DNA from: an uncultured Gammaproteobacteria bacterium
GTDB lineage: Bacteria > Pseudomonadota > Gammaproteobacteria > Xanthomonadales > Xanthomonadaceae
Direction: 5' to 3'
DNA length: 51,506 bases
Assembly (NCBI GenBank): GCA_903942465.1
Contig: CAJAPA010000064.1
Coordinates: 1 to 51,506, forward strand
Shown: in pieces, positions 17,630-29,547 of the stretch
Layout of the letters: every line of letters begins with the position of its first letter
Position numbering within the stretch: position 1 is the stretch's first letter
Notes under the pieces: model-generated
The model's database searches: none
What the model was told of the DNA's origin: nothing
Seen by the model: the letters and a program-made list of their open reading frames with translations, nothing else
Position numbers and translations under genes: made by a program

Positions 17630-19030
17630 ATGGCAGTGGCAAGTATCCAACAGGTGCTCGACGGCAAAATCGCCGTGGGCCAGACCGTGACCGTTCAGGG
17701 CTGGGTGCGCACCCGCCGGGATTCAAAAGCGGGACTGTCGTTCATCAATGTCAGCGACGGCTCCTGCTTCGCGCCGGTGCAGGTGGTGGCTCCCGCCCTG
17801 CTCGGCAATTATGAAAGCGAAATCAAGCGCCTCAGCGCCGGTTGTTCGGTGCGCGCCACCGGCACCGTGGCCGCTTCCGAAGGCCAGGGCCAGAGTTTTG
17901 AACTGCAAGCAAGCACCATCGAGGTGGTCGGCTGGGTCGAAGATCCGGAAACCTACCCGATCCAGCCCAAAGCCCATAGCTTGGAATTCCTGCGCGAAGT
18001 CGCGCACCTGCGCCCGCGCACCAACCTGTTCGGTGCGGTCACCCGCATCCGGCATTGCATGGCCCAGGCCATCCACCGCTTCTTCCACGAGCAGGGCTTC
18101 TACTGGATCAACACCCCGATCATCTCGACCTCGGATGCCGAAGGCGCCGGCCAGATGTTCCGGATTTCAACGCTTGACATGATGAACCTGCCGCGCACCG
18201 CCAAGGGTGAAGTCGATTTCAGCAAGGATTTCTTCGGCAAGGAAGCCTTCCTCACCGTTTCCGGCCAGCTGAACGTGGAGGCATATTGTCTCGCGCTGTC
18301 GAAGGTCTATACTTTCGGCCCGACCTTCCGCGCCGAAAACTCCCACACCACCCGCCATCTGGCCGAATTCTGGATGATCGAGCCGGAAATCGCCTTCGCC
18401 GATCTGAATGATGACGCGGCTTTGGCCGAACAATTCCTGAAGTACATTTTCAAAGCCGTACTCGACGAACGCATGGACGATCTCGCTTTCCTTGCAGAAC
18501 GTGTCGAGAAAACCGCGATCAGCAAACTCGAAGCCTTCATCAATGCGCCCTTCGAACGCATCGAATACGGCGATGCCATCACCCTGCTGCAGAAATCCGG
18601 CCAGAAGTTCGACTATCCGGTCGAATGGGGCCTTGATCTGCAGACCGAACACGAACGCTGGCTCACCGAGGTCCATGTCGGCCGACCGGTGGTGGTGGCC
18701 AATTATCCGGAACACATCAAGGCCTTCTACATGCGCCTGAATGATGATGGCCGCACCGTGGCCGCGATGGACGTGCTGGCGCCGGGCATCGGCGAAATTA
18801 TCGGCGGCAGCCAACGCGAAGAGCGGCTGGATGTTCTGGATTCGCGCATGCGCCAGTTCGGACTGGATCCGGCACATTACGAGTGGTACCGTGACTTCCG
18901 CCGCTACGGCAGCGTGCCGCATGCCGGCTTCGGCCTTGGCTTCGAGCGCCTCGTGGTGTATGTCTGCGGCCTGCAGAACATCCGCGACGCCATTCCCTAC
19001 CCGCGCGCGCCTGGCCTGGCGACCTTCTGA
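17630..19030 (+). CDS. asnS: Asparaginyl-tRNA synthetase
   Basis: [93 protein letters not shown]. Confidence 0.97.
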
Positions 19031-19666: not shown

Positions 19667-20437
19667 GTGGGCATCCTGCAAGGCCGGAAGGCGCTGGTCT
19701 GTGGTGGTTCCGAGGGTATCGGACTGGCTTCGGCGCAGGCGTTGGCAGCGCTCGGCGCGGAAGTCACCCTGCTCGCCCGGCGCAAAGCGCCGCTGCAGGC
19801 CGCGCTGGGCCAGCTTTCAGCCGCGCATGGACAACAGCACGGAATGCTGGTGGCCGATGTGCTCGCGCTTGACGGTGTATTGCCGATCATCGGCGGCACA
19901 GGATTCGATATCCTGATCAACAACAGTGCCGGACCGGCCGGCGGCGCACTGCTCGGCGCCCGTGATGATCAGCTGCTTGATGTTTTCCGGCAGCATGTGC
20001 TTGGCAACCAGCAGCTGGTCCGTGCCATCGTTCCCGGCATGCAGTCCCGTCAATGGGGCCGTATCGTCAACATCATTTCCACCTCGGTGAAAGAACCCAT
20101 CGCCATGCTGGGGGTTTCCAATACCATCCGCGGCGCCGTTGCCTCTTGGGCGAAAACCCTGGCCGGCGAGCTCGCTGCCGATGGCATCACCGTCAACAAC
20201 GTTCTACCCGGCTACACCCGAACACAACGGCTTGAGCAGATCCTGAAAGAACGTGCGGCAGCAACGGGAAAATCCGAAGAAAACATCGCCGCCGCCATGC
20301 TGGCCACGGTTCCCGCGGCGCGTTTCGCCGATGCCGAGGAAGTTGCGCATGCGGTGGCCTTCCTGTGCCAACCTCAATCGGGTTACATCAACGGCATCAA
20401 TCTGCCGGTTGATGGAGGACGCACCAAGTCCCTGTAA
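19667..20437 (+). CDS. SDR-fold (3-oxoacyl-ACP-reductase-like) protein with atypical catalytic tetrad
   Basis: GTG start; Rossmann ALVCGGSEGIGLASAQALAALGAEV, ILINNSAG, C-terminal ITVNNVLPGYTRT and INLPVDGGRTKSL; SNTIR (20117-20131) replaces YxxxK. Confidence 0.85.
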   Translation: MGILQGRKALVCGGSEGIGLASAQALAALGAEVTLLARRKAPLQAALGQLSAAHGQQHGMLVADVLALDGVLPIIGGTGFDILINNSAGPAGGALLGARDDQLLDVFRQHVLGNQQLVRAIVPGMQSRQWGRIVNIISTSVKEPIAMLGVSNTIRGAVASWAKTLAGELAADGITVNNVLPGYTRTQRLEQILKERAAATGKSEENIAAAMLATVPAARFADAEEVAHAVAFLCQPQSGYINGINLPVDGGRTKSL

Positions 20438-20489: not shown

Positions 20490-21932
20490 ATGGAAACAAT
20501 CGACCAATGGATCGCCGGAAGACCGCAGGCATCATCCGATGCGGCCGTTCTGTCCGTATTCGATCCCGTCACCGGACAGGCCTACGCCCGATGCCCGCAG
20601 GGAACAGCCGCCGACATCGCCGCCGCCGTTGCCGCTGCCCGGTCTGCGTTTCCGGCATGGTCTGCGCTCAGAGCCAGTGAGCGCGCCCACTGGCTGAACC
20701 GCCTGGCCGATGCCATCGAAGCCCGCAGCGAGGCCTTCTGCAGCTGCGAAAGCCGCGACACGGGCAAACCCATCGCCCTGGTAAGTGAGATCGAAATCCC
20801 CCGTGCCATCGCCAATTTCCGCTTTTTTGCAGCCGCCTGCACGCAATCCCTGGATCAGGCCTTCCATCAGGAGTCCGGCCTCAATTACACGCTGCACCAG
20901 CCGCTGGGCGTGGTCGGTGTCATCAGCCCCTGGAATCTGCCGCTCTACCTCTTGAGCTGGAAACTGGCGCCGGCGCTGGCTGCCGGCAACTGCGTCATCG
21001 CCAAACCCAGCGAAATCACCCCGATGTCTGCTGACCTTCTGGCGCGAACTGCGCAGGAAATCGGTTTTCCGGCAGGCGTCCTGAATATCATCCAGGGGTC
21101 GGGCGAAACCGTCGGGGCCGCTCTGGTCGCGCACCCGGAGATCAAGGCCATCAGCTTTACCGGCTCCACCACCGTCGGACACCGGATTGCCGCCGTCTGT
21201 GCGGACCAGTTCAAGAAGGTCACCCTTGAGATGGGCGGCAAGAATCCGGCACTGGTCTTTCCCGATGCGCCCGCGCATACCTTGAAAACTTTGGTGCGTG
21301 CCGCCTTCCAGAACAGCGGGCAGATCTGTCTGTGCGGATCACGGATTCTGATTCACCGCGATATCTATGGCGAGTTCACAAAGGCCTTTGTCGCCGAATC
21401 CTCGGCACTGAAGATCGGCGCGCCGTCCAATCCGGCTACGCAGCTCGGGCCGGTCATGTCCGAGGCGCATTTCCGCAAAGTCCTGGCCTACATCGCCCAG
21501 GCTAAAAACGAAGGCGGCAGTGTTCTGTGCGGCGGCGAGGCGGTCAAGCCGGAAGCTTGCGATGGCTGGTTCATCGCACCGACGGTCATCGAAGGCCTGC
21601 CGATGGAGTCTGGTTTCTGTCAGGATGAGATTTTCGGGCCGGTAGTCAGCCTGCATGCCTTTGACGACGATGACCATGCCCTAGCCCTGGCCAATGCTTC
21701 GCGTTACGGCCTGGCTGCCAGTGTATGGACCGGCGATTTGCTGCGCGCCCATCGCATGGCCAATGAGCTCGAGTGCGGCATCGTCTGGATCAACACATGG
21801 ATGCAGCGGGATCTGCGCACACCCTTCGGCGGCATGAAGCAATCCGGTTTCGGTCGAGAAGGCGGCCTGGATGCCATGAAATTTTTCACTGAACCCAAAA
21901 CCGTCTGTATAGGAGCTCTGTCCAATGGCTGA
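20490..21932 (+). CDS. 2-aminomuconate 6-semialdehyde dehydrogenase (ALDH8A1/AmnC-like)
   Basis: METIDQWIAGRPQ...; ALDH motifs ISPWNLPLYLLSWKLAPALAAGNCVIAKPSE, FTGSTTVGHRI, LEMGGKNPALVF, NSGQICLCGSRILI; sits in an operon with HaaO and ACMSD. Confidence 0.86.
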   Translation: METIDQWIAGRPQASSDAAVLSVFDPVTGQAYARCPQGTAADIAAAVAAARSAFPAWSALRASERAHWLNRLADAIEARSEAFCSCESRDTGKPIALVSEIEIPRAIANFRFFAAACTQSLDQAFHQESGLNYTLHQPLGVVGVISPWNLPLYLLSWKLAPALAAGNCVIAKPSEITPMSADLLARTAQEIGFPAGVLNIIQGSGETVGAALVAHPEIKAISFTGSTTVGHRIAAVCADQFKKVTLEMGGKNPALVFPDAPAHTLKTLVRAAFQNSGQICLCGSRILIHRDIYGEFTKAFVAESSALKIGAPSNPATQLGPVMSEAHFRKVLAYIAQAKNEGGSVLCGGEAVKPEACDGWFIAPTVIEGLPMESGFCQDEIFGPVVSLHAFDDDDHALALANASRYGLAASVWTGDLLRAHRMANELECGIVWINTWMQRDLRTPFGGMKQSGFGREGGLDAMKFFTEPKTVCIGALSNG

Positions 21933-22581
21933 ACTGACCGCTCTGCTGGAGCAGAACAAAGCTTGGGCCGAACGCATTCTGGCCGAGGACCCGGGTTTCT
22001 TCAGCCGTCTGGCGCAGATTCAGAATCCGCGTTATCTGTGGATCGGGTGTTCCGACTCGCGCGTACCGGCCAACCAGATCACCGGGATGGATCCCGGTGA
22101 AGTCTTCGTACACCGGAATGTGGCCAATGTGGTGGTACATACCGACCTGAACTGCCTCAGCACCATCCAGTACGCCGTCGATATGCTGAAAGTCGAACAC
22201 ATCATCGTGTGCGGGCATTACGGATGTGGCGGCATCCAGGCCACGCTCGACGGCCAGCGCATCGGACTGGTCGATAACTGGCTGCGCCATGTCGTCGACG
22301 TCCATGACAAACACCATGAACGGCTTGAAAAACTCGATGCCGTCCAGCGCGTCAAAACGCTCTGTGAATTGAATGTCATCGAGCAGGTCCTCAATGTCTG
22401 CCAGAGCACCGTCCTGCAGGATGCCTGGAGCCGGGGCCAATCCGTCCAGGTGCATGCCTGGATCTACTCGTTGCATGACGGCCGCATCCAGGCGCTCAAT
22501 CAAGGCATCGAGGGGCCCGATACCGTGATCGGCGGCTACCGCCGTGCCGTCAGCGCATGCTGGGAGAGCCTGGATGTCTGA
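21925..22581 (+). CDS. can: Beta-class carbonic anhydrase
   Basis: WIGCSDSRVPANQITGMDPGEVFVHRNVANVV and IIVCGHYGCGGIQATL (Zn ligands C/H/C and Asp-Arg dyad). Overlaps the upstream ALDH by 8 bp. Confidence 0.96.
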   Translation: MAELTALLEQNKAWAERILAEDPGFFSRLAQIQNPRYLWIGCSDSRVPANQITGMDPGEVFVHRNVANVVVHTDLNCLSTIQYAVDMLKVEHIIVCGHYGCGGIQATLDGQRIGLVDNWLRHVVDVHDKHHERLEKLDAVQRVKTLCELNVIEQVLNVCQSTVLQDAWSRGQSVQVHAWIYSLHDGRIQALNQGIEGPDTVIGGYRRAVSACWESLDV

Positions 22582-22999
22582 TTCCATTCAGTCCGGAAAC
22601 GCCCCGAAAGCGGTGGGCTCATACCCGCATGCGCGCCGCGCAGGCAATCTGCTCTTTCTATCCGGCATCGGCCCTCGTTCGGCAACGGATAACGGCATTC
22701 CCGGAAACATCTATGGTGCCGATGAAAAACTCATGTCCTATGATATTGCAGCACAGTGCCACGCTGTTTTTGCCAATGTGCGCAGCGTATTGGAAGCCTG
22801 CGGCGCCGGCATGGACGATCTTCTCGACGTCACCGTTTATATGACCGACATGGCAAAGGACTTCCCTGTATACAACCGCATCTGGGCCGAGTATTTCCCG
22901 GATTCCGGCAAGGCGCCCTGCCGGACCACGCTTGGAATTACGTCCTTGCCGACGCCGATCGCCATCGAACTCAAATGCATTGCCACCGCCAGGAGCTGA
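22574..22999 (+). CDS. RidA/YjgF-family protein, probable 2-aminomuconate deaminase
   Basis: [35 protein letters not shown]...[22 protein letters not shown]; operon position between AMSDH/CA and HaaO. Confidence 0.83.
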
Positions 23000-23000
23000 C

Positions 23001-23534
23001 ATGTTGACGCCTGCTTTCAACCTTCAGGAATGGATCGACGGGCATCGGCACCTGCTCAAGCCGCCGGTCGGTAACAAATGCATCGTCGATGCCGATTACA
23101 TCGTCATGATCGTAGGCGGGCCGAACGAACGGACCGACTATCATTACGAAGACGGTCCCGAATTCTTTTACCAGATCGAAGGTGAAATGATCCTGCGCAT
23201 CCAGGAAGGTGGCCGGCCCCGCGACATTCCGATCAAGGCCGGTGAAATGTTCTACCTGCCGCCGCACGTTCCGCACTCCCCGCAGCGCATGCCGAATTCG
23301 GTCGGTCTGGTCATCGAGCGCAAACGCCTTGCCCATGAACAGGATGCCCTGATGTGGTTCTGCGAGCGCTGCAACGTCAAGATCTATGAAGAATTCTTTC
23401 ATCTGACCGATATCGAAAACCAGTTCCATGCCGTTTTCGAACGCTTTTACCGCTCAGCTGCATACCGCACCTGCACGGCCTGCGGCCATCTGAACCCGGC
23501 TCCCGCCCGCTACCATCACGAAACCCCGGAGTAA
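23001..23534 (+). CDS. haaO: 3-hydroxyanthranilate 3,4-dioxygenase (with C-terminal rubredoxin-like Cys pairs)
   Basis: [27 protein letters not shown]...[16 protein letters not shown]...; CERC ... CTACG motifs typical of bacterial HaaO. Confidence 0.94.
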
Positions 23535-23537
23535 CCC

Positions 23538-24494
23538 GTGTTTTCATCTGAACTGCTCGCCGCAAATCTTCTGTCGCCGGTCGTACTGGCTTTTGCATTG
23601 GGCATGTTGGCCCGTCTGCTGCGCAGCGATCTTGAAATTCCGAGCGCCATCCAAAGCTATCTCTCGATCTTCCTGTTGCTGGCCATCGGCCTGAAGGGCG
23701 GGGTCGCACTCGGCAACAACGCCCCCGATAACCTGCCGCTCTACGTTTTTGCCACACTGGCACTGGGCGTGGCGACTGCCGTCAGTGCCTACTTCACCGC
23801 CAAGCTATGGCTGCGCGATTCCCGCCTCGATGCCGCCGCCATGGCGGCGCACTTCGGCTCGGTGTCCGCGGTCACCTTCATCGCCGCGCAGCAATTCACC
23901 GAACGCAGCGGCCAGCCGGCCGATGCCGTGCTGGTCGCACTTGTGGTTGCCCTGGAAATTCCGGCAATCCTGATCGGTCTGGCATTGGCCAAAGGCGGCG
24001 ATGGCATCCGTTGGCATCAGGTCCGGGAAGTGCTGACCGGTAAAACTGCATTGCTGCTGATCGGGGGCATGGCCATCGGCTACCTGTCCGGAAAAGACGG
24101 CATCGCGAAAGTCGATGCCATGTATTTCCAGCTATTCCAGGGCACGCTGATGCTGTTCATGCTGGACATGGGCATGACCGCCGCGGGGCAGCTGCGTAGC
24201 GTCGGCAAAGAGGCGTTCCGACTCGGGCTCTATGCCACGGCCCTGCCTCTGCTGCACGGCACAATCGGCGTAGCGCTCGGCCATGCCATCGGCATGAACG
24301 CCTCCACGGCAGCGGTATTCGGCACCATGGCTGCCAGTGCCTCATACATCGCAGCTCCTGCATCGATGCGCGCTTCATTGCCAGAAGCCAATACCGGCCG
24401 TTGCATCACCGCAGCGCTGGGCTTCACATTTCCGTTCAATCTGGCCGTCGGCATACCGCTCTACGCGGCAATGGCGCACTGGCTCTCCGCATAG
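23538..24494 (+). CDS. SbtA-family (DUF897) sodium-dependent bicarbonate transporter-like permease
   Basis: About 10 hydrophobic segments; SbtA-like elements FGSVSAVTFIAA, LFQGTLMLFMLDMGMTAAGQL, PLLHGTIGVALG, SASYIAAPASMRASLPEANTGRCITAALGFTFPFNLAVGIPLY. Confidence 0.87.
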   Translation: MFSSELLAANLLSPVVLAFALGMLARLLRSDLEIPSAIQSYLSIFLLLAIGLKGGVALGNNAPDNLPLYVFATLALGVATAVSAYFTAKLWLRDSRLDAAAMAAHFGSVSAVTFIAAQQFTERSGQPADAVLVALVVALEIPAILIGLALAKGGDGIRWHQVREVLTGKTALLLIGGMAIGYLSGKDGIAKVDAMYFQLFQGTLMLFMLDMGMTAAGQLRSVGKEAFRLGLYATALPLLHGTIGVALGHAIGMNASTAAVFGTMAASASYIAAPASMRASLPEANTGRCITAALGFTFPFNLAVGIPLYAAMAHWLSA

Positions 24495-24502
24495 AGATCC
24501 GC

Positions 24503-25522
24503 ATGCTCCGTATCGATACCCACGCCCACTACCTGCCCCGCGACTGGCCGGATCTTGCCAGCAAGTACGACGACAACCGCTTTCCCGTGATTCACCACGG
24601 CGAAGACGGCCGCCACCGCATCTACAAGGACGGCAAGTTCTTCCGTGAAATCTGGCCGAAAACCTGGGACCCGCAGGAACGTATCGATGACTATGCGCGT
24701 TTCGGCATCCAGGTCCAGGTCATCTCGACGGTGCCGGTCATGTTCAGTTACTGGGCACCGGCACATCAGGCTCTCGAACTGCATGAAAGCCTCAACGAGC
24801 ACATGGCGGAAACCTGCCGCAATTTTCCCGCCCACTATGCCGGCATCGGAACCGTTCCGCTGCAGTCACCGCGACTGGCCATCCAGGAGATGGAGCGCTG
24901 CGTGGACCAGCTCGGCCTGTGCGGCGTTCAGATCGGTTCGCACATCAACGACTGGAATCTGGATGACCCCGAGCTGCGCCCGTTCTTCGAAGCCGCCCAG
25001 GACCTCGATGCCGCCATTCTTGTGCACCCCTGGGACATGATGGGCACCGACAGCATGCCAAAGTATTGGATGCCCTGGCTGGTCGGCATGCCGGCCGAAC
25101 AGTCGCGCGCGGCCTGTGCCCTCATCTTCGGCGGCGTACTGCAGCAGTTTCCGCGACTGAAAGTGATGCTTGCCCACGGCGGCGGCAGCTTCCCCTACAC
25201 CATCGGCCGCATCGAACACGGTTTCAACATGCGGCCGGATCTGGTGGCCACCGACAATCCGCACAATCCCCGGGATTATTTCAAACAACTCTACTTTGAT
25301 TCCTGCGTGCATGACGACCGCGCCCTGCGCTACCTTCTGGACACCGTCGGCATCGACCGTGTCATGCTCGGTACCGATTATCCCTTTCCGCTCGGTGAAC
25401 AGGAACCTGGTTCGGGAATCCTGGGTCTGAATCTGGAGGCCGGCGATCAGGAACAGTTGTTTAACCGTACCGCGCTGTCCTGGCTGGGCCGGGACCGCCG
25501 TCACTTCGAGCAGAAATCATGA
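24503..25522 (+). CDS. 2-amino-3-carboxymuconate-6-semialdehyde decarboxylase (ACMSD, amidohydrolase superfamily)
   Basis: MLRIDTHAHYLPRDWPDL (HxH), ILVHPWDMMG, LAHGGGSFPYTIGRIEHGF, LGTDYPFPLGE. Confidence 0.93.
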   Translation: MLRIDTHAHYLPRDWPDLASKYDDNRFPVIHHGEDGRHRIYKDGKFFREIWPKTWDPQERIDDYARFGIQVQVISTVPVMFSYWAPAHQALELHESLNEHMAETCRNFPAHYAGIGTVPLQSPRLAIQEMERCVDQLGLCGVQIGSHINDWNLDDPELRPFFEAAQDLDAAILVHPWDMMGTDSMPKYWMPWLVGMPAEQSRAACALIFGGVLQQFPRLKVMLAHGGGSFPYTIGRIEHGFNMRPDLVATDNPHNPRDYFKQLYFDSCVHDDRALRYLLDTVGIDRVMLGTDYPFPLGEQEPGSGILGLNLEAGDQEQLFNRTALSWLGRDRRHFEQKS

Positions 25523-26787
25523 TTTACAGCAACGACTATGCCGATCAGCTCGACCGTACTGATTCATTAGCCTCGTTCCGCGACCGCTTTCATATCCCGA
25601 AGCACGCGAATGGTGATCAAATTTATCTGTGCGGAAACTCTCTTGGCCTTCAACCCAAAAGCGTAAAGGCTGCGCTTCAGCAGGAGCTGAATGACTGGGC
25701 GGCGTTTGGCGTCGAGGGCCATTTCCATGCCAAGCACCCATGGATGCCCTATCACGGCGAACTGCGGGATCTGCTCGCGGAAAATGTCGGTGCCAGGCCG
25801 GTTGAGGTCGTGGCCATGAATTCCTTGACCGTCAATCTCCACTTATTGATGGTCAGTTTCTACCGGCCGAAAGCCGAGCGCGCGGCAATCGTCATCGAAC
25901 AGGGCGCATTCCCCTCCGACCGTTACGCCGTCGAATCCCAAATCCGCTTCCATGGCTTCGACCCGGCCGAGTGCCTGATCGAAATCGCTGCCGATACGGA
26001 TACCGGACTGATTCCGACAGATGCCCTGGAAAACTGCCTGCGTGAACACGGCCACCGCGTGGCCCTGATTCTGTGGCCCGGCGTGCAGTACCGTTCCGGT
26101 CAGGCCTTCGATCTGAAGGCCGTGACTGAACTTGGCCACTTCCATGGTTGCCAGGTCGGCTTCGATCTGGCGCATGCTGCCGGCAATCTGCCCTTGCATC
26201 TGCATGATTCCGGCGCGGATTTCGCGGCCTGGTGCAGCTACAAATATCTGAACTCCGGCCCGGGCGCCATCGCCGGCGCTTTCGTGCACGAGCGTCATGC
26301 ACAGTCGGTACTGCCAAGGTTCAATGGCTGGTGGGGCCATCATCAGGACACCCGTTTCCAGATGGGGCCGGAATTCAAAGGCACGCCCGGCGCCGAAGGG
26401 TGGCAGCTCAGCAATCCGCCGATTTTCGCCATGGCGCCGATGCGCGCTTCCCTGGAAATCTTCCATGAAGCCGGAATGCCGGCCTTGCGGCGCAAATCTC
26501 TCGCGCTTACCGCATACCTGGAAGCCCTCATCCGACAGGAGCTCGACGATGTGCTTCGCAGTGTCACCCCCGTCGACCCCGAGCAGCGCGGATGCCAGTT
26601 GAGTTTGCAGGTACGCGCCGGGCGCGATGCCGGACGCCGGCTTTTTGAACACCTCATGAAGTCCGGCGTCATCGGCGACTGGCGGGAGCCGGACGTCATC
26701 CGCCTATCGCCGACACCGCTTTACAACCGTTTCAGTGACTGCCTCGGCGCGGTTCGCTGTATCAAACAATGGGCGGGTTCAGCATGA
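25519..26787 (+). CDS. kynU: Kynureninase
   Basis: IYLCGNSLGLQPKSVKAALQQELNDWAAFGVEGHF; FDLAHAAGNLPLHLHDSGADFAAWCSYKYLNSGPGAIAGAFVHERH; WWGHHQDTRF. Confidence 0.97.
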   Translation: MIYSNDYADQLDRTDSLASFRDRFHIPKHANGDQIYLCGNSLGLQPKSVKAALQQELNDWAAFGVEGHFHAKHPWMPYHGELRDLLAENVGARPVEVVAMNSLTVNLHLLMVSFYRPKAERAAIVIEQGAFPSDRYAVESQIRFHGFDPAECLIEIAADTDTGLIPTDALENCLREHGHRVALILWPGVQYRSGQAFDLKAVTELGHFHGCQVGFDLAHAAGNLPLHLHDSGADFAAWCSYKYLNSGPGAIAGAFVHERHAQSVLPRFNGWWGHHQDTRFQMGPEFKGTPGAEGWQLSNPPIFAMAPMRASLEIFHEAGMPALRRKSLALTAYLEALIRQELDDVLRSVTPVDPEQRGCQLSLQVRAGRDAGRRLFEHLMKSGVIGDWREPDVIRLSPTPLYNRFSDCLGAVRCIKQWAGSA

Positions 26788-28130
26788 AGCAGCAGACGAT
26801 CCACATCGCCGGTGCGGGTCTTGCAGGCGCCCTGCTCGCCATCCTGCTGGTCCAGAAAGGCCATACCGTACGCATCTATGAAAAACGTCCGGATCCGCGT
26901 AAAGCAGGCGTCGAGGGTGGCCGATCGATCAATCTGGCTCTAGCCTATCGCGGTCTGTATGCCCTGCAGCAGGCCGGACTCGATGACGAGGTGATGCCGC
27001 AGGTGGTCATGATGCGCGGGCGCATGGTCCATGATGTTTCGGGCAATACCCATTTCCTGCGCTATGGCAAGGACGACTCGGAAGTGATCTGGTCGGTCCA
27101 CCGTGGCCGCCTGAATCTTGCGCTGATTGAGGCCGCTGAAAAACAGGGCGTCACCGTGTATTTCAATGCCCGTATCGCTGATATCGACCTGGAACGCAAT
27201 ACGCTGCGCATCGACTATCTTGACCACAGCGAAACCGAACCATTTGAACGCCTGATCGGGGCCGACGGCGCCGGATCGGCCGTGCGCCGGGTGCTGGCCG
27301 ACAAGGGCCTGGTTCAAGAACATCTGGCGTCGCTGGGCCACAATTACCGTGAGCTGGAAATCGCTCCGGATGCACATGGCGATTTCAAACTGGACGGCAA
27401 CAGTCTTCATATCTGGCCGCGTGGCGGCTATATGTGCATCGCCCTGCCGAATACCGAAAAGACCTTTACCGTCACCCTTTTCCTGCCAGCCGAGGGCAAT
27501 CCGGGCTTCGACAAGATCCGGGATCCGGCACAGGCCCGGCAGTTCTTCTCCGACGTCTTTCCGGATGCGCTCGACAAAATCGCTGACTTCGACTACGACT
27601 GGCAGCATAATCCGGAGAGCGCACTGGCGACGCTGACACTCGACACCTGGCACCATGGCGAACGTATCGTTCTAATCGGCGATGCCGCGCATGCCATGGT
27701 ACCGTTCCACGGCCAAGGCATGAACTGCGCCTTCGAGGACTGTCTGGCATTAGTCGATGCCATCGAGAATGCAGAAAACTGGAATACTGCCATTAGCACC
27801 TACGAGACGGCCCGACGCGAAAACGCCGCTGCCATCCAGACCATGGCGTTGGAAAACTACGTGGAGATGCGAGACAAAGTCGATGACAGCCGTTTCCTGC
27901 TGGAAAGAACACTTGAGCGCGAATTGGCCGGCCGCCATCCGGACCGCTTCATTCCCCGTTACAGCATGGTCAGTTTCCAGCGCGTGCCTTATGCCGTTGC
28001 CCTGCACCGCGGCAGGATCCAACGCGGCATCCTCGCACGTCTATGTGAAGGAATTTCCGATATCGCCCAGGTCGATTATGCCTTAGCCTCGGAGATGGTC
28101 CATCGCGAACTCGAGCCCCTGCATGCCTGA
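26784..28130 (+). CDS. kmo: Kynurenine 3-monooxygenase
   Basis: IHIAGAGLAGALLAILLVQKGHTVRIYEKRPDPR...GRSINLALAYRG; ERIVLIGDAAHAMVPFHGQGMNCAFEDC. Confidence 0.96.
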   Translation: MKQQTIHIAGAGLAGALLAILLVQKGHTVRIYEKRPDPRKAGVEGGRSINLALAYRGLYALQQAGLDDEVMPQVVMMRGRMVHDVSGNTHFLRYGKDDSEVIWSVHRGRLNLALIEAAEKQGVTVYFNARIADIDLERNTLRIDYLDHSETEPFERLIGADGAGSAVRRVLADKGLVQEHLASLGHNYRELEIAPDAHGDFKLDGNSLHIWPRGGYMCIALPNTEKTFTVTLFLPAEGNPGFDKIRDPAQARQFFSDVFPDALDKIADFDYDWQHNPESALATLTLDTWHHGERIVLIGDAAHAMVPFHGQGMNCAFEDCLALVDAIENAENWNTAISTYETARRENAAAIQTMALENYVEMRDKVDDSRFLLERTLERELAGRHPDRFIPRYSMVSFQRVPYAVALHRGRIQRGILARLCEGISDIAQVDYALASEMVHRELEPLHA

Positions 28131-29547
28131 AAGCTTCCTCTGGTACGATCTTGAAACCTTCGGCCGCAGCCCGCGCAACAGCCGGATCTCCCAGTTCGCC
28201 GCCATCCGTACCGACTCGGATTTGAATCCGATCGGCGAACCGGTATCCTTGTTCTGCCGCCCGGCCGATGATTTTCTGCCCGAACCGGAAGCGGCCCTCA
28301 TCACCGGAATAACCCCACAGCATGCCCTCGCCGCCGGGCTGTGCGAAGCCGAGTTCATGGCGGTTCTGCACGCACAATTCAGCCAGCCTGGCACCTGTTC
28401 ACTCGGCTACAACTCGATCCGGTTTGATGACGAATTCATCCGTTTCGGACTGTACCGGAATTTCTTCGATGCCTACGAGCGCGAATATGCCGGCGGCAAC
28501 TCCCGCTGGGACCTGCTCGATGTCATGCGCATGCTCTATGCGATGCGCCCGGAGGGGCTGCAATGGCCGCTGCGCGAGGATGGACTGCCGAGCTTCAAAC
28601 TGGAAGATCTGGCCAAAGCCAACGATTGCTTCGAAGGCGAAGCCCATGAGGCGCTTTCGGATGTACGCAGCCTGATCAACCTGGCGCGACGGGCCAAAGC
28701 CGCGCAACCGAGGCTATGGGATTACGCACTGAAGCTCCGTGACAAGGAATTCGTGGCCGGCATCATTGCTCCGCACAAACGCCAGGCGGTGCTGCATGTG
28801 TCGGGCCAGTTTTCCGCAGAGCGGGCCTGCAGCGCATTGATGCTGCCGCTGATGCCGCATCCCTTGATCAAGAACCGGGTGGTCGCCGTGGAGCTGGCGC
28901 CGGAAGCCCTGAAACTTCTGCATTACACGCCCGAAGAAATCGCCAGCAACATTTTTACCAAACGCAGCCTGCTGCCGGAAGGTGAAAGCCGCATCGGCAT
29001 CAAGGAAATCCAGCACAACCACTGCCCGGTGGTCGTCGCCCTGCAGTCCTTGAGTGAAGCCGAACTGGCCCGATGGAGCATTGATGCCGAACGCCTCAAG
29101 CTTGATATTGCCACTGCCGACGCAGTCCATGTCGAGCTTCTGGCGCATTCCGACATCATTACTGACAAGTTGGCAAAGGTTTTCAGCCGTCCGCGTAGTG
29201 GCGAACCGGCCGATCCGGATGCTGCACTCTACGACGGATTCATTGAACGCGCTGACAAGGTGAAATTCGGAAAAGCACGCTCCAGCATGGGCCGCGATCC
29301 CCTCGTCTTCATTGATCCGCGCCTGAGTGAACTGTACTTCCGCTACAAGGCGCGAAACTGGCCGGAATCGATGACCGGCGACGAGTCGGTTCAATGGCGG
29401 GACTTCCGGAAAAGCCGGCTGACGCCGGAAGCGCTGGCCGATTACACGCAGCAATGCCTCACACTGGCCGAAGCTCATCCCGACAAAGCCGGGGTCATAC
29501 GGGCATTGATCGACTGGGCAGAACAGATCTCTCCGGCAAAGGTATGA
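28123..29547 (+). CDS. sbcB: Exodeoxyribonuclease I
   Basis: ESFLWYDLETFGRSPRNSRISQFAAIRTD (DEDD exo I motif), CSLGYNSIRFDDEFIRFGLYRNFFDAYEREY, NDCFEGEAHEALSDV. Confidence 0.96.
   Translation: MPESFLWYDLETFGRSPRNSRISQFAAIRTDSDLNPIGEPVSLFCRPADDFLPEPEAALITGITPQHALAAGLCEAEFMAVLHAQFSQPGTCSLGYNSIRFDDEFIRFGLYRNFFDAYEREYAGGNSRWDLLDVMRMLYAMRPEGLQWPLREDGLPSFKLEDLAKANDCFEGEAHEALSDVRSLINLARRAKAAQPRLWDYALKLRDKEFVAGIIAPHKRQAVLHVSGQFSAERACSALMLPLMPHPLIKNRVVAVELAPEALKLLHYTPEEIASNIFTKRSLLPEGESRIGIKEIQHNHCPVVVALQSLSEAELARWSIDAERLKLDIATADAVHVELLAHSDIITDKLAKVFSRPRSGEPADPDAALYDGFIERADKVKFGKARSSMGRDPLVFIDPRLSELYFRYKARNWPESMTGDESVQWRDFRKSRLTPEALADYTQQCLTLAEAHPDKAGVIRALIDWAEQISPAKV

What the first reader, a model, noticed from the sequence alone, without database searches (positions are those of the whole stretch)
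21925..25522. Carbonic anhydrase and SbtA-type bicarbonate transporter embedded in a kynurenine/3-hydroxyanthranilate degradation operon around its decarboxylase
Seen in sequence: the order is AMSDH-CA-RidA deaminase-HaaO-SbtA-ACMSD-KynU-KMO, all on the + strand. Junctions are AMSDH/CA 8 bp overlap, CA/RidA 8 bp overlap, RidA/HaaO 1 nt gap, HaaO/SbtA 3 nt gap, SbtA/ACMSD 8 nt gap, ACMSD/KynU 4 bp overlap, KynU/KMO 4 bp overlap. CA and SbtA are therefore not passengers at an operon edge. Established knowledge: ACMSD releases CO2 from 2-amino-3-carboxymuconate semialdehyde in competition with non-enzymatic cyclisation to quinolinate; beta-CA interconverts CO2 and HCO3-; SbtA is known as a Na+/HCO3- symporter, mainly studied in cyanobacterial carbon concentration. 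Inference: this could be a CO2/bicarbonate-handling module attached to tryptophan catabolism, either (a) hydrating decarboxylation CO2 and moving it as HCO3- to favour ACMSD flux over quinolinate, or (b) retaining it for anaplerosis. Alternatively (c), the SbtA homologue transports an anionic pathway intermediate. I am not aware of a described CA/SbtA role in this pathway, but I could not search the literature.
Basis: partly seen in the sequence, partly recalled or inferred. Interest (0 to 1): 0.87.

Follow-up and report, generated by a model that had tools for sequence, protein, structure and literature searches.

The report
Bicarbonate genes inside kynurenine–NAD operon
In Arenimonas and its relatives the cell's only detected carbonic anhydrase and a bicarbonate-type transporter sit inside the tryptophan/NAD operon, and comparison of about 57 related loci shows they do not follow the CO2-releasing decarboxylase, so they most likely supply bicarbonate to the whole cell rather than help that one enzyme.

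Summary
In detail: all seven junctions are as described, and every gene identification held up. The arrangement is conserved: carbonic anhydrase (CA) is in 44 of 54 usable kynurenine loci across Lysobacterales, SbtA in 29. When ACMSD is lost, AMSDH, RidA and an upstream SDR go with it. CA stays in 6 of 7 such loci and SbtA in one of these, plus two more ACMSD-less loci outside that set. Tight spacing is not special: the flanking asnS and sbcB sides are equally tight.

The CA is an E. coli Can orthologue with all catalytic residues, and the only alpha/beta CA found in the genome. The SbtA is a monophyletic, operon-restricted clade with the SbtA fold. Its nearest outside relatives are SbtA–SbtB units, some beside LCIB-type CAs. 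Two genomes with no alpha/beta CA keep the transporter. I read the pair as a bicarbonate-supply module housed in an operon that, without nadA, is this genome's apparent NAD route. Substrate and direction are untested; formate is a live rival. A side lead, the SDR as candidate 2-aminomuconate reductase, may be more interesting.

The parts
19667..20437 (+). SDR-family oxidoreductase, first gene of the catabolic block; candidate 2-aminomuconate/4-oxalocrotonate reductase (inference)
   Evidence: Pfam adh_short; present only where ACMSD is present (43/43) and absent from 7/7 ACMSD-less loci
20490..21932 (+). 2-aminomuconate semialdehyde dehydrogenase (AMSDH)
   Evidence: best solved-structure matches are AMSDHs, 437 bits; follows ACMSD across loci
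21925..22581 (+). type II beta-carbonic anhydrase, orthologue of E. coli Can
   Evidence: NCBIfam PRK10437 304 bits; E. coli CA 283 bits; W39 C42 D44 R46 R64 H98 C101 Y181 present; only PF00484 gene in the genome, no PF00194
22574..22999 (+). RidA-family protein, probable 2-aminomuconate deaminase
   Evidence: Ribonuc_L-PSP; follows ACMSD across loci
23001..23534 (+). 3-hydroxyanthranilate 3,4-dioxygenase (HAAO)
   Evidence: 3-HAO, NCBIfam above cut-off; solved HAAOs
23538..24494 (+). SbtA-family transporter (PF05982), kyn-operon clade
   Evidence: Sbt_1 317 bits; fold matches 7egl/7cyf/8zor, TM 0.84-0.90; monophyletic kyn clade 99/95
24503..25522 (+). 2-amino-3-carboxymuconate semialdehyde decarboxylase (ACMSD)
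   Evidence: human ACMSD 394 bits, Pseudomonas-type ACMSD 241 bits
25519..26787 (+). kynureninase
   Evidence: TIGR01814 462 bits, cut-off 246
26784..28130 (+). FAD monooxygenase, kynurenine 3-monooxygenase by context
   Evidence: FAD_binding_3; conserved next to KynU
28123..29547 (+). exodeoxyribonuclease I (sbcB): conserved downstream flank, not part of the pathway
   Evidence: NCBIfam PRK11779 550 bits; found in 28 of 55 relatives' loci
17630..19030 (+). asnS-like gene: conserved upstream flank, not part of the pathway
   Evidence: named from the translation, not run against a family library; found in 37 of 55 relatives' loci

Best explanation
The pair is a general bicarbonate-supply module lodged in the kynurenine/NAD operon. 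The CA is the cell's housekeeping Can, keeping CO2 and bicarbonate in rapid equilibrium for carboxylases. The SbtA homologue imports bicarbonate with Na+ and is an optional supplement or substitute when CO2 is scarce. The operon is a conserved chromosomal locus (asnS side ... sbcB) that, with no nadA found in this genome, carries the apparent de novo NAD route; placing CA there ties it to an essential, aerobically expressed transcript. Shown: gene identities, single detected CA, conserved locus, independence of CA from ACMSD, SbtA fold and phylogeny. Inferred: co-transcription, bicarbonate as substrate, import direction, and the reason for co-location.
For: Single PF00484 gene and no PF00194 gene in the genome; Can orthologue with intact catalytic residues. 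CA persists in 6 of 7 ACMSD-less operons; phi with ACMSD -0.04, against 0.93 for AMSDH and RidA; tree-aware result the same. Nearest non-kyn SbtA relatives (34 loci): 17 neighbouring proteins are P-II (SbtB-like), 5 are LCIB-type CAs, 7 are LysR regulators, so the parent family looks like canonical bicarbonate uptake. Binding-position residues are the same inside and outside the kyn clade, and kyn-specific positions (13) are no more numerous than in other clades (6-18). G035 and G040, with no alpha or beta CA, keep SbtA in the operon. No nadA in this genome. CA and a bicarbonate transporter can replace one another in heterotrophs: MpsAB and Can (PMC6689103).
Against: Two of four proposed bicarbonate contacts of Synechocystis SbtA are replaced (Y140 to V136, S327 to A272), although this holds for all non-cyanobacterial members aligned. 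No SbtB gene is in the operon. SbtA is gained or lost about 11 times, so it is dispensable. CA and SbtA are not significantly associated with each other (phi 0.23, p 0.16). The explanation does not say why this operon rather than any other housekeeping operon, nor why the kyn-type SbtA never leaves it. Gamma- and other CA classes were not searched.
Confidence: 0.6

Rival explanations
1. ACMSD-coupled CO2 disposal: CA hydrates decarboxylation CO2 and SbtA moves bicarbonate, favouring ACMSD over quinolinate formation.
For: Conserved adjacency; SbtA weakly associated with ACMSD (28 of 29 SbtA loci also have ACMSD; phi 0.31, p 0.04, not corrected for relatedness).
Against: CA and SbtA persist without ACMSD. 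ACMSD decarboxylation is regarded as effectively irreversible and CO2 diffuses freely (general knowledge), so little pull is gained.
Confidence: 0.07
2. Formate: the SbtA homologue exports, or takes back, the formate released one per tryptophan by kynurenine formamidase.
For: A PF05982 homologue, Shewanella SO_3758, whose reported binding-pocket residues (S-A-S-Y-I-A) match those here, raises formate tolerance when expressed, in Zymomonas also as wild type (PMC12093963). Bicarbonate and formate are structurally alike.
Against: Formamidase and TDO are not in this operon (TDO is on another contig). SbtA persists in ACMSD-less operons where flux should be small. Relatives are linked to SbtB and LCIB-type CA.
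Confidence: 0.13
3. A pathway-acid transporter: the kyn-clade SbtA moves an aromatic or dicarboxylic acid such as kynurenine, 3-hydroxyanthranilate or quinolinate.
For: All 37 kyn-clade loci found are in kyn operons, nearly always next to HAAO, in two gene orders. Clade-specific residues include R288, Q119 and V133. ASBT-fold relatives carry larger organic anions.
Against: Pocket positions unchanged relative to relatives outside kyn operons; number of clade-specific positions unremarkable.
Confidence: 0.12
4. Pure position: CA and SbtA are passengers in a stable, tightly packed housekeeping locus, with no functional logic to the neighbourhood.
For: Flanks asnS and sbcB conserved and equally tight; CA lies elsewhere in several relatives (G030, G046, G047, G055, G056, G058).
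Against: SbtA entered or left about 11 times, yet kyn-clade SbtA is never seen outside the operon.
Confidence: 0.08

Closest known systems
Cyanobacterial SbtA/SbtB bicarbonate uptake (Synechocystis Slr1512; PMC8352866)
   Same: Same family (PF05982) and fold (TM 0.84-0.90 to solved SbtA); S114 and S324 contacts kept
   Different: About 30% identity; Y140 and S327 replaced; no SbtB partner gene; kynurenine operon instead of sbtA-sbtB unit
Bicarbonate supply in heterotrophs by CA or transporter (MpsAB of Staphylococcus; Can of E. coli; PMC6689103)
   Same: CA and a DIC transporter as alternative or joint suppliers of bicarbonate for growth in air
   Different: Different transporter family; both genes together inside a kynurenine/NAD operon
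Bacterial kynurenine/3-hydroxyanthranilate catabolic operons (as in Pseudomonas and Burkholderia)
   Same: KMO, KynU, HAAO, ACMSD, AMSDH, 2-aminomuconate deaminase
   Different: Adds SDR, CA, SbtA; no 4-hydroxy-2-oxovalerate aldolase orthologue above cut-off in 41 genomes (without a positive control); ACMSD closer to the human than the Pseudomonas-type enzyme

Membership tests
Beta-CA, Can type (type II) | Zn ligands C42, D44, H98, C101 and catalytic D44-R46 dyad | tested here: met
   all present
Beta-CA, Can type (type II) | Allosteric bicarbonate-site residues W39, R64, Y181 | tested here: met
   present
Beta-CA, Can type (type II) | Carbonic anhydrase activity | not testable with these tools
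   needs assay
SbtA (PF05982) | Family profile and 5+5 inverted-repeat fold | tested here: met
   317 bits; Foldseek 7egl E 1.1e-13, (model mean pLDDT 77)
SbtA (PF05982) | Four proposed bicarbonate contacts (S114, Y140, S324, S327) | tested here: inconclusive
   2 of 4 kept; the same replacements occur in all non-cyanobacterial members aligned
SbtA (PF05982) | SbtB (PII-like) partner gene adjacent | tested here: not met
   none in the operon; SbtB-like gene adjacent in many outside relatives
SbtA (PF05982) | Na+-dependent bicarbonate transport | not testable with these tools
   needs transport assay; hence filed as an SbtA-family protein, not as a proven bicarbonate transporter
   CA phi -0.04; SbtA kept in L129, L144, L175 without ACMSD
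De novo NAD route from tryptophan | HAAO, KynU, KMO and TDO present, NadA absent | tested here: met
   NadB and NadC not searched

The most novel reading that the evidence does not exclude
The kyn-clade SbtA is a specialised transporter for a product of this pathway (formate, or an aromatic or dicarboxylic acid), which would redefine the substrate range of the proteobacterial PF05982 family, with CA in the operon for an unrelated housekeeping reason.
Probability: 0.23. Interest if true: 0.7.

Novelty: new variant of a known kind. Interest (0 to 1): 0.45.

Why it matters
It shows a lineage-wide pairing of bicarbonate supply with a tryptophan/NAD operon that I did not find described in the open-licence papers searched, and it gives a clean natural experiment. 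Relatives with CA only, SbtA only, both, or no decarboxylase can be compared directly. It also corrects a tempting inference: tight, overlapping junctions next to a decarboxylase do not mean the genes serve the decarboxylase. If the transporter proves to carry formate or a pathway acid instead, the automatic name 'bicarbonate transporter' for many bacterial PF05982 proteins would need revision.

Tried and rejected
ACMSD-specific CO2 role: rejected on neighbourhood and tree evidence. Operon compactness as evidence of coupling: rejected because the flanks are equally tight. Kyn-specific substrate pocket: looked for and not found at mapped positions; 13 clade-specific positions are not unusual compared with other clades. 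Link between SbtA and absence of nadA: no association seen when reading side by side. DmpG_comm search: no control rang, so uninformative; repeated with TIGR03217, where no genome, controls included, passed the cut-off. Insertions between operon genes in relatives (cytochrome bd subunits, a TonB receptor, a FUSC-type protein, an amidohydrolase) gave no common theme. The second SbtA structure paper was not held. Literature searches found no description of CA or SbtA in a kynurenine operon.

Full report
What is there. The window comes from a 2.07 Mb Arenimonas-like genome (Lysobacteraceae; genus inferred from named relatives). Family searches confirm the identities. The flanking genes asnS (via two small genes) and sbcB are conserved flanks in the family and are joined just as tightly, so compactness is not in itself a sign of shared function.

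How widespread it is. In 55 relatives' HAAO loci, CA lies between AMSDH and RidA throughout the genus and in several other genera; SbtA is patchy. A scan of one genome per species found 72 loci encoding SbtA relatives. All 37 with at least 61% identity are Lysobacterales kynurenine operons, with SbtA beside HAAO in either order in nearly all; the other 35 are elsewhere. The kyn-operon type is one clade, support 99/95. Outside the order, 12 HAAO loci showed neither CA nor SbtA nearby.

Does it belong to the decarboxylase? No. In 54 usable loci, AMSDH, RidA and SDR track ACMSD (phi 0.93, 0.93, 0.76), CA does not (phi -0.04) and SbtA does so weakly (0.31). Six of seven ACMSD-less loci keep CA. 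Loci L129, L144 and L175 keep HAAO–SbtA–KynU–KMO although no ACMSD was found anywhere in those genomes (their completeness is not known to me), and complete genomes G032 and G036 lack ACMSD but keep CA next to HAAO. On a HAAO+KynU tree ACMSD changes at least 3-4 times; its partners change with it, CA does not. The number of independent events is small, so this is a consistent pattern rather than a significance test.

What the CA is. It is a type II beta-CA orthologous to E. coli Can, with all catalytic and allosteric-site residues. It is the only beta-CA in the genome and no alpha-CA was found; other classes were not searched. Where relatives lack CA in the operon, a beta-CA gene usually lies elsewhere. 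This looks like the housekeeping enzyme.

What the transporter is. Sequence and predicted fold place it in the SbtA family. Of four bicarbonate contacts proposed for Synechocystis SbtA (PMC8352866), two are kept and two replaced; the same holds for every non-cyanobacterial member aligned, so this is a family trait and not a kyn-clade change. Its nearest outside relatives sit beside PII-like SbtB genes, LysR regulators and LCIB-type carbonic anhydrases, a bicarbonate setting. Two genomes without alpha or beta CA, G035 (which appears to be Silanimonas lenta) and G040, keep the transporter in the operon. Substrate and direction remain untested. Formate is a live alternative because a Shewanella homologue raises formate tolerance (PMC12093963).

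Why this operon. No nadA was found in this genome and TDO is present, so NAD apparently comes from tryptophan and the operon should be expressed constantly. An essential aerobic operon is a plausible home for an enzyme needed for growth in air. This last step is inference.

Verdict.

Side lead. The SDR follows the catabolic block. No 4-hydroxy-2-oxovalerate aldolase reached the cut-off in 41 genomes (no control genome passed either, so the absence is not validated). The genome encodes a clear glutaryl-CoA dehydrogenase, and its ACMSD is closer to the human than to the Pseudomonas-type enzyme. Together these suggest an animal-type route, 2-aminomuconate to 2-oxoadipate to glutaryl-CoA, with the SDR as candidate reductase. 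From general knowledge, the gene for that step is not established in animals. Glutaryl-CoA dehydrogenase also serves lysine breakdown, so its presence is only consistent with this route.

Noticed in passing
window 19667-20437: The SDR gene occurs only with ACMSD, AMSDH and RidA (43 of 43 loci; absent from 7 of 7 ACMSD-less loci). With no aldolase of the meta-cleavage route above cut-off and a glutaryl-CoA dehydrogenase in the genome, it is a candidate 2-aminomuconate or 4-oxalocrotonate reductase.
   Followed up: partly
window 24503-25522: ACMSD is much closer to human ACMSD (394 bits) than to Pseudomonas-type ACMSD (241 bits), suggesting shared ancestry or gene exchange with the eukaryotic branch.
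   Followed up: no
G035 and G040 (loci L066/L127 and L071/L146): Near-complete genomes with neither alpha- nor beta-CA detected that keep SbtA in the kynurenine operon.
   Followed up: partly
L150, L155, L160-L162, L164, L167, L169-L172, L176, L178, L179, L184, L186: Balneolota and Verrucomicrobiota loci carry SbtA next to small genes of about 100 aa; across the 34 outside loci, 17 neighbours are P-II (SbtB-like) and 5 are LCIB-type CAs.
   Followed up: partly
G026:C31:21376-22275 (L115, L206): A second, very divergent PF05982 gene in an Arenimonas genome, on a long branch and away from the kyn operon.
   Followed up: no
L060:6313-8762: Cytochrome bd oxidase subunits I and II lie between HAAO and ACMSD in one relative, on the opposite strand to the operon.
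   Followed up: no
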